43,284 nucleotides of DNA from Acetobacter sp. AN02 (lineage in GTDB: Bacteria; Pseudomonadota; Alphaproteobacteria; Acetobacterales; Acetobacteraceae). The stretch spans positions 1 through 43,284 of the forward strand of contig NZ_JAJJND010000009.1 of assembly GCF_029759835.1 (NCBI RefSeq). The letters are read 5' to 3'. The notes under the pieces were generated by a model. The model did not search any database. It was not told the DNA's origin and worked only from the letters and a program-made list of their open reading frames with translations. A program made the position numbers and the translations under genes. Every line of letters starts with the position of its first letter. Position 1 is the first letter of the stretch. This document shows, piece after piece, positions 14,939 through 39,109 of the stretch.

Positions 14939-15019
14939 GGGGGCGGCCTTTCAAAAACAGGAACCACCGGGGTACGGCGGCGGAACTCCGGCTGAACCGA
15001 AGCAGCGGCAGAAAGAAAG

Positions 15020-15041
15020 GCGGGGCACTGATATGCCCCGC
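15020..15041 (-). terminator. Terminator-like hairpin between rpsK and rpoA
   Basis: An 8-bp perfect stem (GCGGGGCA / TGCCCCGC) with a 6-base loop is followed on the minus strand by CTTTCTTTC. It starts 14 bases past the rpsK stop and 79 bases before the rpoA start, so it could attenuate rpoA-rplQ expression. Confidence 0.6.
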
Positions 15042-15054
15042 AGATCCGATCAGA

Positions 15055-27325: not shown

Positions 27326-27634
27326 TTAGAGTTTAATCTCGACATCCACGCCGGCGGCGAGGTCGAGTTTCATGAGGGCGTCCACGGTCTGCGGTGTCGG
27401 CTCGACAATGTCGAGCAGCCTGCGGTGAGTCCGAATCTCGAACTGCTCGCGGCTTTTCTTATCCACGTGGGGTGAGCGGTTTACAGTGAACCGTTCGATA
27501 TGCGTCGGCAGCGGGATAGGACCCCGAACCTGCGCACCCGTACGCTTCGCCGTGTTCACGATTTCCTTCGTGCTGTTATCCAGCACCCGGTGGTCGTAAG
27601 CCTTAAGGCGAATGCGGATGTTCTGGTTGTCCAT
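27326..27634 (-). CDS. rpsJ: 30S ribosomal protein S10
   Basis: A 102-residue small-subunit protein that also serves as NusE in antitermination complexes. It has [34 protein letters not shown], and E-Q-F-E-I-R-T-H-x-R-L. It opens the S10 block, directly behind a strong terminator after tuf, so it probably has its own promoter in the 111-bp gap; I could not identify that promoter with confidence. Confidence 0.98.
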
Positions 27635-27684
27635 CGTCTCTGTTCAATCCGTTATCTGGTCCGGGAAGCCCGCCACCTGGGAAA

Positions 27685-27714
27685 AGGCCCCGGCCGGAAA
27701 ACCGGCCGGGGCCT
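27685..27714 (-). terminator. Intrinsic terminator between tuf and rpsJ
   Basis: A perfect 13-bp stem (AGGCCCCGGCCGG / CCGGCCGGGGCCT) with an AAAA loop is followed on the minus strand by TTTTC. It lies 31 bases past the tuf stop and divides the str block from the S10 block. Confidence 0.85.
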
Positions 27715-27745
27715 CACCCGATCTGGGCCCGTCTGGTCCCTGAGA

Positions 27746-28936
27746 TTACTCAGTGATCTTCGAAACCACGCCGGCGCCGACCGTGCGGCCACCCTCGCGG
27801 ATAGCAAAGCGCAGACCTTCGTCCATGGCGATCGGAGCGATCAGCTCGACATCCATAGCGATGTTGTCGCCCGGCATGACCATTTCCGTGCCTTCCGGCA
27901 GGTGAACGACACCGGTGACGTCCGTCGTGCGGAAGTAGAACTGCGGACGGTAGTTCGTGAAGAACGGCGTGTGACGCCCACCCTCTTCCTTCGTAAGGAT
28001 GTAGGCTTCAGCCTTGAACTTCTTATGCGGCGTGATGGAGCCCGGCTTGGCCAGAACCTGGCCACGCTCGACGTCCTCACGCTTCGTGCCACGCAGAAGC
28101 GCACCGATGTTGTCGCCTGCCTCTCCGCGGTCGAGCAGCTTGCGGAACATCTCAACGCCTGTCACGGTCGTCTTCACGGTGTCACGCAGACCGACGATCT
28201 CAACTTCGTCACCGACGTTGACAGCGCCACGCTCGACACGGCCCGTCACGACGGTGCCACGGCCGGAAATCGAGAACACATCTTCGATCGGCATCAGGAA
28301 CGGACGGTCGATCGGACGCTCCGGCTGCGGGATGTAGGCATCAACCGCATCCATCAGCTCGAGAACGCGATTCTCACCAACCTCTGCGTCGCCGTCTTCC
28401 AGCGTCACGAGAGCGGAGCCCTTCACGATGGGGATATCATCACCCGGGAACTGATAGGAGGAGAGAAGCTCACGCACTTCCATCTCGACCAGCTCAAGCA
28501 GTTCCGGATCGTCAACCTGATCAACCTTGTTCAGGAACACGACCAGAGCCGGCACGCCGACCTGACGGGCGAGCAGGATGTGCTCACGGGTCTGCGGCAT
28601 CGGGCCGTCTGCAGCAGACACGACCAGGATCGCGCCGTCCATCTGGGCAGCACCGGTGATCATGTTCTTCACGTAGTCAGCGTGACCCGGGCAGTCGACG
28701 TGAGCGTAGTGACGCTTGTCGGTCTCGTACTCAACGTGAGCCGTGGAGATCGTAATGCCGCGGGCGCGCTCTTCAGGAGCCGCGTCAATCTGATCATACG
28801 CCTTGAACTCAGCGCCGCCCTTCTTTGCAAGGGTCTTGGTGATTGCTGCAGTCAGCGAGGTCTTGCCGTGATCGACGTGACCGATCGTGCCGATGTTGCA
28901 GTGCGGCTTATTCCGCTCAAACTTAGCCTTTGCCAT
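27746..28936 (-). CDS. tuf: Elongation factor Tu
   Basis: A 396-residue GTPase that delivers aminoacyl-tRNA to the ribosomal A site. The G-domain motifs are present: G-H-V-D-H-G-K-T at residues 18-25, D-C-P-G-H-A-D-Y near 80-87, and N-K-V-D near 135. Domains 2 and 3 follow at normal length. It comes directly after rpsG; the usual fusA is missing between them. A strong terminator follows. A second tuf copy elsewhere is possible. Confidence 0.99.
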
Positions 28937-30396: not shown

Positions 30397-34638
<4,242 letters not shown>

Positions 34639-34655
34639 TTAAAACCACGTCCCTG

Positions 34656-34673
34656 CCGGTTCGGGAGAACCGG
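34656..34673 (-). repeat. Second hairpin in the rpoB-rpoC gap
   Basis: A perfect 7-bp stem (CCGGTTC / GAACCGG) with a GGGA loop, directly downstream of the terminator-like hairpin on the minus strand. Together they form a tandem structure ahead of rpoC; its role is unknown. Confidence 0.5.
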
Positions 34674-34675
34674 GT

Positions 34676-34702
34676 AAAAAGCGGGGCCTGACAGAGCCCC
34701 GC
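34676..34702 (-). terminator. Terminator-like hairpin between rpoB and rpoC
   Basis: The stem GCGGGGC / GCCCCGC (7 bp, 8-base loop) is followed on the minus strand by a run of five T. It begins seven bases past the rpoB stop. By form this is an intrinsic terminator inside the rpoBC operon, so it must be leaky, antiterminated, or bypassed by a separate rpoC promoter. Confidence 0.75.
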
Positions 34703-34708
34703 GGCTGA

Positions 34709-38881
<4,173 letters not shown>

Positions 38882-38915
38882 CGTATTCTGCTCCGTCCCT
38901 GCCATCGGACTATCA

Positions 38916-38943: not shown

Positions 38944-39021
38944 GGACAGTCCGGCGGTGTATTTATCAGATACCGCACCTGGCTTTGCCACAACTCGGGC
39001 ATCCTGCACAACAGACAGGCA

Positions 39022-39046
39022 GGCGGAGACCGAAACGGCCTCCGCC
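39022..39046 (-). terminator. Candidate rplL-rpoB attenuator
   Basis: An 11-bp stem (GGCGGAGGCCG / CGGTCTCCGCC on the minus strand, one G-U pair) with a 3-base loop. The pair at that position would be an A-C mismatch on the plus strand, so the structure favours the minus-strand RNA. The tail TGCCTGTCTGTTG is weakly T-rich. It lies where E. coli has its rplL-rpoB attenuator. Confidence 0.5.
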
Positions 39047-39109
39047 CGAACCAGATCAGAAGTCCTGATGACGCCAGGGAAACCCCCGGACATCACCGGA
39101 TCCGCGAGA

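What the first reader, a model, noticed from the sequence alone, without database searches (positions are those of the whole stretch)
34650..34708. Tandem hairpins, one with a T-run, between rpoB and rpoC
Beta and beta' are normally made in equal amounts from one transcript. An intrinsic-terminator-like stem with five T seven bases after rpoB, followed by a second stem, is unexpected and could make rpoC depend on antitermination or its own promoter.
Basis: seen in the sequence. Interest (0 to 1): 0.5.

Follow-up and report, generated by a model that had tools for sequence, protein, structure and literature searches.

The report
Ribosome-masked terminator-like hairpin between rpoB and rpoC
Between two genes for the RNA-copying enzyme of an acetic-acid-type bacterium there is a hairpin that looks like a transcription stop signal, but it sits so close to the end of the first gene that ribosomes probably keep it switched off, and its stop tail is rarely shared by relatives, so it looks like a modest local variation rather than a new control system.

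Summary
On the rpoBC strand, six bases after the rpoB stop, lies an 8-bp GC-rich stem (H1, 34702-34681) followed by five T, then a second stem (H2, 34673-34656). A third, stronger hairpin (H3, 34636-34593) was missed, because the rpoC start is 34575, not 34629; the gap is 133 nt. H1 scores as a moderate intrinsic terminator (d 21.4; 2 of 1000 gap shuffles reach it), below 13 of 19 scoring terminators at sampled convergent gene ends.

In relatives the hairpins are kept by paired changes (upstream hairpin, 11 long-gap species: 110 of 110 cells paired; start-proximal hairpin, 33 short-gap species: 42 double-changed cells, 17 expected). The T-run is not: among 15 long-gap species a T-tail abuts an upstream hairpin only here and in the nearest relative (by a looser score, 4 of 15 pass). 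In E. coli a terminator a few bases after a stop codon is almost fully suppressed by the ribosome.

Best reading: an intercistronic hairpin cluster, probably for mRNA processing or stability, in which H1 is at most a translation-gated, leaky terminator. No promoter-like site or antiterminator fold was found. No RNA data were available; the nearest relative is only about 90% identical.

The parts
34709..38905 (-). rpoB (beta subunit), upstream gene
   Evidence: TIGR02013 1906 bits
34681..34702 (-). H1: terminator-like stem-loop, 8 pairs, loop 6, first stem base 7 nt after the rpoB stop
   Evidence: -16.0 kcal/mol; d 21.4; 2 of 1000 shuffles
34676..34680 (-). T-run TTTTT directly after H1
   Evidence: sequence; among 15 long-gap relatives a T-tail abuts an upstream hairpin only here and in L088
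34656..34673 (-). H2: second stem-loop, 7 pairs, loop 4, no T-run
   Evidence: -10.3 kcal/mol
34638..34646 (-). unpaired U-rich stretch GGTTTTAAC, shared with L088; possible endonuclease site (inferred)
34593..34636 (-).
   Evidence: -29.0 kcal/mol; counterparts; model R1 of the short-gap hairpin does not match it
34586..34590 (-). GGAGG, likely ribosome-binding site of rpoC
   Evidence: invariant in the 15 long-gap sequences
30397..34575 (-). rpoC (beta' subunit) from the homology-supported ATG at 34575
15020..15041 (-). hairpin with the same 7-bp stem GCGGGGC/GCCCCGC as H1, in the rpsK-rpoA gap

Best explanation
The 133-nt rpoB-rpoC gap holds an intercistronic cluster of three hairpins, not a regulatory block on rpoC. 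The hairpins near the rpoB stop are inferred to shield the 3' end of rpoB mRNA; the U-rich stretch is a candidate endonuclease (RNase E) entry; H3 is inferred to shield the 5' end of the rpoC segment and keep the GGAGG site open. In this species H1 has gained a T-run and is a moderate intrinsic terminator on paper. Because its stem begins six bases after the rpoB stop codon, the ribosome finishing rpoB should keep it from folding while RNA polymerase passes, so translated transcripts read through into rpoC; only transcripts without a close ribosome would end there. Shown: the anatomy, the score against shuffles, the paired changes in relatives, the scarcity of the T-run. Inferred: ribosome masking in this organism, the RNA-processing roles, leakiness.
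For: H1 anatomy and score. Stop-to-stem spacer 6 nt; in E. coli moving a stop codon from 28 to 5 bp before tR2 cut termination from about 90% to under 10%, and uncoupling translation abolished the repression (PMC4824070, passages). Upstream hairpin kept by paired changes in 11 of the 15 long-gap species that share its length: 110 of 110 cells paired, 6 of 11 pairs with change on both sides, 17 double-changed cells against 5.2 in shuffles (the window row is not in that alignment). Start-proximal hairpin in 33 short-gap species: 88.3% of cells paired against 81.1, 42 double-changed cells against 17.0. T-run not kept. Same tandem layout in the rpsK-rpoA gap in 30 genomes read. RNase E cleavage before a protective intercistronic hairpin (papBA) and preference for AU-rich sites in Rhodobacter are published (PMC5927463, PMC6238624, passages).
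Against: No RNA 3'-end, processing or expression data. By the looser d-score 4 of 15 long-gap species have an upstream hairpin above 0 (L082 21.4, L088 12.0, L104 11.0, L086 1.1), so weak terminator potential recurs in this clade. A computational study reports that clusters of hairpins act as terminators without a U-run (PMC8355165, abstract and section 13), which would make the whole cluster suspect. The whole-gap folding z is the same as in control gaps (genus mean -1.88; control -1.86). Some covariation measures do not exceed shuffles (pairs with double change in A1: 90 of 500 shuffles reach 10; further pair types in A5: 331 of 500). Model R1 does not match H3, so H3's kinship with the short-gap hairpin rests on position only. 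An RNase E-like word RNWUU was found in 28 of 48 by a faulty extraction. Coupling of ribosome and polymerase in this genus is unknown; the same paper has a terminator at 18 bp with efficiency about 0.8.
Confidence: 0.5

Rival explanations
1. H1 (alone or with H2 as a cluster) is a working partial terminator that lowers rpoC transcription relative to rpoB in this species, made good by stronger translation of rpoC.
For: d 21.4, within the range of convergent-end terminators; 4 of 15 long-gap relatives have an upstream hairpin with d above 0; hairpin clusters without U-runs are claimed to terminate (PMC8355165); an attenuator is known in the same operon of E. coli, between rplL and rpoB (PMC4670729, passage).
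Against: Six-base distance to the stop codon (PMC4824070). Only five T; 13 of 19 scoring convergent-end terminators score higher. T-run absent in most relatives.
Confidence: 0.2
2. One reading: rpoC depends on a dedicated antitermination system or on its own promoter in the gap.
For: Terminator-like anatomy.
Against: No sigma-70-type site in the gap (other types not covered); no competing antiterminator fold; no Rfam match; no conserved partner of the T-run in relatives.
Confidence: 0.05
3. The T-run and the exact H1 stem are neutral; H1 is just one of the GC-rich 3' hairpins found after genes in these genomes.
For: Strong perfect stems in 16 of 43 control codirectional gaps and d above 0 in 4 of 51; the same stem after a catalase-like gene and in the rpsK-rpoA gap.
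Against: Only 2 of 1000 shuffles of the gap reach the score; upstream hairpins of relatives show paired changes, so the hairpin, if not the T-run, seems selected.
Confidence: 0.25

Closest known systems
Intrinsic terminator close to a stop codon, suppressed by the ribosome (tR2 constructs in E. coli; pyrBI attenuator cited there), PMC4824070
   Same: GC-rich stem plus T-run a few bases after a stop codon, with the next gene downstream
   Different: no measured termination here; shorter T-run; native RNA polymerase operon of another class
rplL-rpoB attenuator of the E. coli rplKAJL-rpoBC operon (PMC4670729 passage)
   Same: same operon, terminator-like element inside the transcript
   Different: lies one gene earlier and separates ribosomal genes from rpoBC; here rpoB is separated from rpoC
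Intercistronic processing and stabilising hairpins (papBA in E. coli, PMC5927463; puf in Rhodobacter, PMC6238624; cip-cel in Clostridium, PMC4423207 abstract)
   Same: tandem stems around a U- or AU-rich unpaired stretch between two genes of one complex
   Different: no cleavage mapped here; no known need for unequal beta and beta'

Membership tests
Intrinsic (Rho-independent) terminator | GC-rich stem-loop directly followed by a T-run | tested here: met
   8 pairs, 7 G-C, TTTTT; d 21.4
Intrinsic (Rho-independent) terminator | more than chance for the composition | tested here: met
   2 of 1000 shuffles reach d 21.4
Intrinsic (Rho-independent) terminator | RNA 3' ends and loss of downstream RNA | not testable with these tools
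   no RNA data; G. oxydans RNA papers do not name rpoB or rpoC in the main text
Intrinsic (Rho-independent) terminator | kept in relatives | tested here: inconclusive
   stem position kept; abutting T-tail on an upstream hairpin in 2 of 15 long-gap species, d above 0 in 4 of 15
Transcription attenuator with antiterminator | mutually exclusive fold of comparable energy | tested here: not met
   -25.8 against -36.6 kcal/mol on 34760-34681
Described RNA families (Rfam 15) | match to a family model | tested here: not met
   0 at gathering for the window; 0 up to E 5 for 34400-34900
Intercistronic processing/stabilising hairpin | structure kept by paired changes in relatives | tested here: met
   (relatives; the window itself is not a row of either alignment)
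Intercistronic processing/stabilising hairpin | mapped endonuclease cut and altered half-life | not testable with these tools
   no RNA data
REP-like dispersed repeat | many copies in the genome | tested here: not met
   241-base query: 1 place; GCGGGGCN{3,9}GCCCCGC: 3 places

The most novel reading that the evidence does not exclude
In this species H1 is a translation-gated checkpoint: rpoC is transcribed only behind a ribosome that has just finished rpoB, so beta' is made only when beta is; and the hairpin clusters before rpoC and before rpoA (same 7-bp stem in this genome) form a set that ties RNA polymerase subunit supply to translation.
Probability: 0.1. Interest if true: 0.6.

Novelty: new member of a known kind. 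Interest (0 to 1): 0.3.

Why it matters
Beta and beta' are needed one to one. If H1 works, this species would have a simple, factor-free way to make the second subunit depend on translation of the first, testable with one reporter. More generally, the gap between two invariant genes keeps hairpins while its sequence drifts, in this genus and in the rpsK-rpoA gap too, which points to selection on intercistronic structure in core operons that annotation ignores. If H1 is silent, it is a warning that terminator-like motifs just after stop codons should not be read as operon breaks.

Tried and rejected
Rfam: nothing. A promoter in the gap: none of the scanned type. Antiterminator fold: none of use. 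Dispersed repeat: no. Co-evolution of the rpoA-gap and rpoC-gap hairpins: the window genome shares a 7-base stem word, above all 870 between-genome comparisons (32 of 870 reach 6), and G038 shares 6, but the other 28 of 30 genomes share 5 or fewer, and the stem was noticed before the test; rejected as a general rule. An RNase E word RNWUU as a conserved site: 28 of 48, with an extraction that in some long-gap rows picked the ribosome-binding region instead; not used as support. A covariance model of the short-gap hairpin (R1): its 33 strong hits in 49 genus genomes are the 33 rows it was built from, 9 more are weak (E 0.002-0.05), and it does not find the window. Literature: brought no paper on this gap in this family; only an open-access library was searched.

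Limits of the controls: genes in the 400 kb of control DNA and in the window were called with a script of my own; two earlier versions were replaced, which covers 77% of the DNA and misses rplK in the window in favour of an antisense frame. The d formula and its constants are recalled. Relatives are not independent samples. Of 210 other-genus genomes with a match I took gaps from 69, mostly the most similar; one search's printout was cut in the middle, and re-printed 44 of the 69.

Full report
What is there. The window carries, on the minus strand, rplK, rplA, rplJ, rplL, rpoB and rpoC. The rpoB frame ends at 34709. The open reading frame list starts rpoC at 34629, but alignment with relatives puts the first residue of the conserved [10 protein letters not shown] at 34575, with GGAGG at 34590-34586. 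The gap is therefore 34576-34708, 133 nt. In the sense of the genes it reads: six bases, H1 (34702-34681), TTTTT, H2 (34673-34656), a U-rich unpaired stretch (34646-34638), H3 (34636-34593), the ribosome-binding site, ATG.

Is H1 more than chance? A simple pattern scan says little: 18 sites in 16 kb against 11.6 in shuffles. A d-type score (recalled formula, T-run weight plus stem energy per base) gives H1 21.4; 2 of 1000 dinucleotide shuffles of the gap reach that, 34 of 1000 exceed zero. As yardsticks, in 400 kb from two relatives and the window, with genes called by a rough script, 19 of 72 convergent gene ends have a score above zero, 13 of them above H1, and 4 of 51 codirectional gaps of 60-200 nt do. 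H1 is thus a moderate terminator candidate: shorter T-run than the best ones. No opposing fold of similar strength exists, and no sigma-70-type promoter lies in the gap.

Relatives. The end of RpoB was found in 48 of 49 genomes of the genus and 216 of 249 drawn from the family; gaps were read in the 48 and in 69 of 210 other-genus genomes with a match, from 42 genera. In the genus, 33 gaps are 93-106 nt and 15 are longer (the window's group, 133-165 nt). A perfect stem of at least 7 pairs with 5 G-C occurs in 45 of 48 genus gaps and in 41 of 69 others (stems with bulges are missed), against 16 of 43 sampled codirectional gaps of 70-200 nt. The overall folding z-score does not differ (genus mean -1.88; control -1.86).

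Structure is kept while sequence changes. In the 33 short-gap sequences the start-proximal hairpin has 88.3% of cells paired (81.1 in shuffles) and 42 cells changed on both sides (17.0 in shuffles); slid versions fall to 58% or less; but the number of pairs with a double change, 10, is reached by 90 of 500 shuffles. In 11 of the 15 long-gap species, those with an upstream hairpin of one length (left out: the window, L088, L101, L103), all 110 cells are paired, 6 of 11 pairs have double changes and 17 cells do (5.2 in shuffles); the number of pair types is not above shuffles. Some relatives have lost the hairpins: two species of one genus have a 66-nt gap without the start-proximal hairpin (L124, L126). 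A covariance model of the short-gap hairpin does not recognise H3, so H3 is a counterpart by position and flanks, not by shown homology.

The T-run is not kept. Among the 15 long-gap species, a T-tail directly at an upstream hairpin occurs only in the window and in L088, the nearest relative by the start of rpoC (89.9% ungapped identity; by the end of rpoB others are closer). By the looser d-score two more, L104 (11.0) and L086 (1.1), pass zero. So weak terminator potential recurs in this clade, and that counts for the rival of a partial terminator. No relative close enough to test conservation within the species was available.

Likely working. In E. coli, a strong terminator was almost fully repressed when a few base pairs behind a stop codon: moving the stop from 28 to 5 bp before it cut efficiency from about 90% to under 10%, and uncoupling translation abolished the repression; at 17-18 bp the result depended on sequence (0.12 or 0.8) (PMC4824070, abstract and passages). 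H1 begins after a six-base spacer. If ribosome and polymerase are coupled in this organism, transcripts that are being translated should read through, and only transcripts without a close ribosome should stop. That gives equal beta and beta' without a special factor. The conserved part of the design, hairpin, U-rich stretch, hairpin, ribosome-binding site, resembles intercistronic processing and stabilising elements (papBA and puf; PMC5927463 and PMC6238624, passages; Clostridium cip-cel, PMC4423207, abstract). The processing role is inferred. A contrary view, that hairpin clusters terminate without U-runs, is in PMC8355165 (abstract and section 13).

A parallel. The rpsK-rpoA gap has the same tandem layout in the 30 genomes read (47 had a match). 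In the window genome its first hairpin has the same seven-base stem as H1; GCGGGGCN{3,9}GCCCCGC occurs at three places in the genome, none for the reversed control; the third follows a catalase-like gene. Within-genome sharing of a stem word this long is not seen in 870 between-genome comparisons, but only the window shows it among 30 genomes. It may be chance, conversion, or a shared factor.

Verdict. Observation confirmed; terminator anatomy supported; dependence of rpoC on antitermination or an own promoter not supported. A lineage-specific member of a known kind, of modest interest.

Noticed in passing
14939-15054 and L222-L251: The rpsK-rpoA gap carries tandem hairpins in the 30 genomes of the genus read, with the layout of the rpoB-rpoC gap; in this genome the first stem equals H1's.
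   Followed up: partly
39020-39048 (minus): A 13-pair hairpin CGGGCGGAGGCCGTTTCGGTCTCCGCCTG in the rplL-rpoB gap, the place of the E. coli attenuator; its T-tail is weak.
   Followed up: no
about 27650-27720 (minus): Very strong terminator-like hairpin GGCCCCGGCCGG-TTTT-CCGGCCGGGGCC with TTTT between the genes for EF-Tu (27746-28936) and S10 (27326-27634), d 45.7.
   Followed up: no
L162, L163, L166, L168 and L179 gaps: Long palindromic, repeat-like inserts of the CCAGGGGCAGAGCCCTGG kind in the rpoB-rpoC gap of some other genera.
   Followed up: no
L124 and L126 gaps: Two species of genus g42 have a 66-nt gap in which the start-proximal hairpin seen in L123, L159 and L161 is missing.
   Followed up: no
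34576-34590 and the same place in relatives: The ten or so bases between ribosome-binding site and rpoC start (TTTTCGGCGC, CTTCGGCAC and the like) are more conserved than the rest of the gap.
   Followed up: no
G040:C38:14331-14813: A TAG stop is reported inside the frame at the end of RpoB in a small genome (1.7 Mb) of the genus.
   Followed up: no
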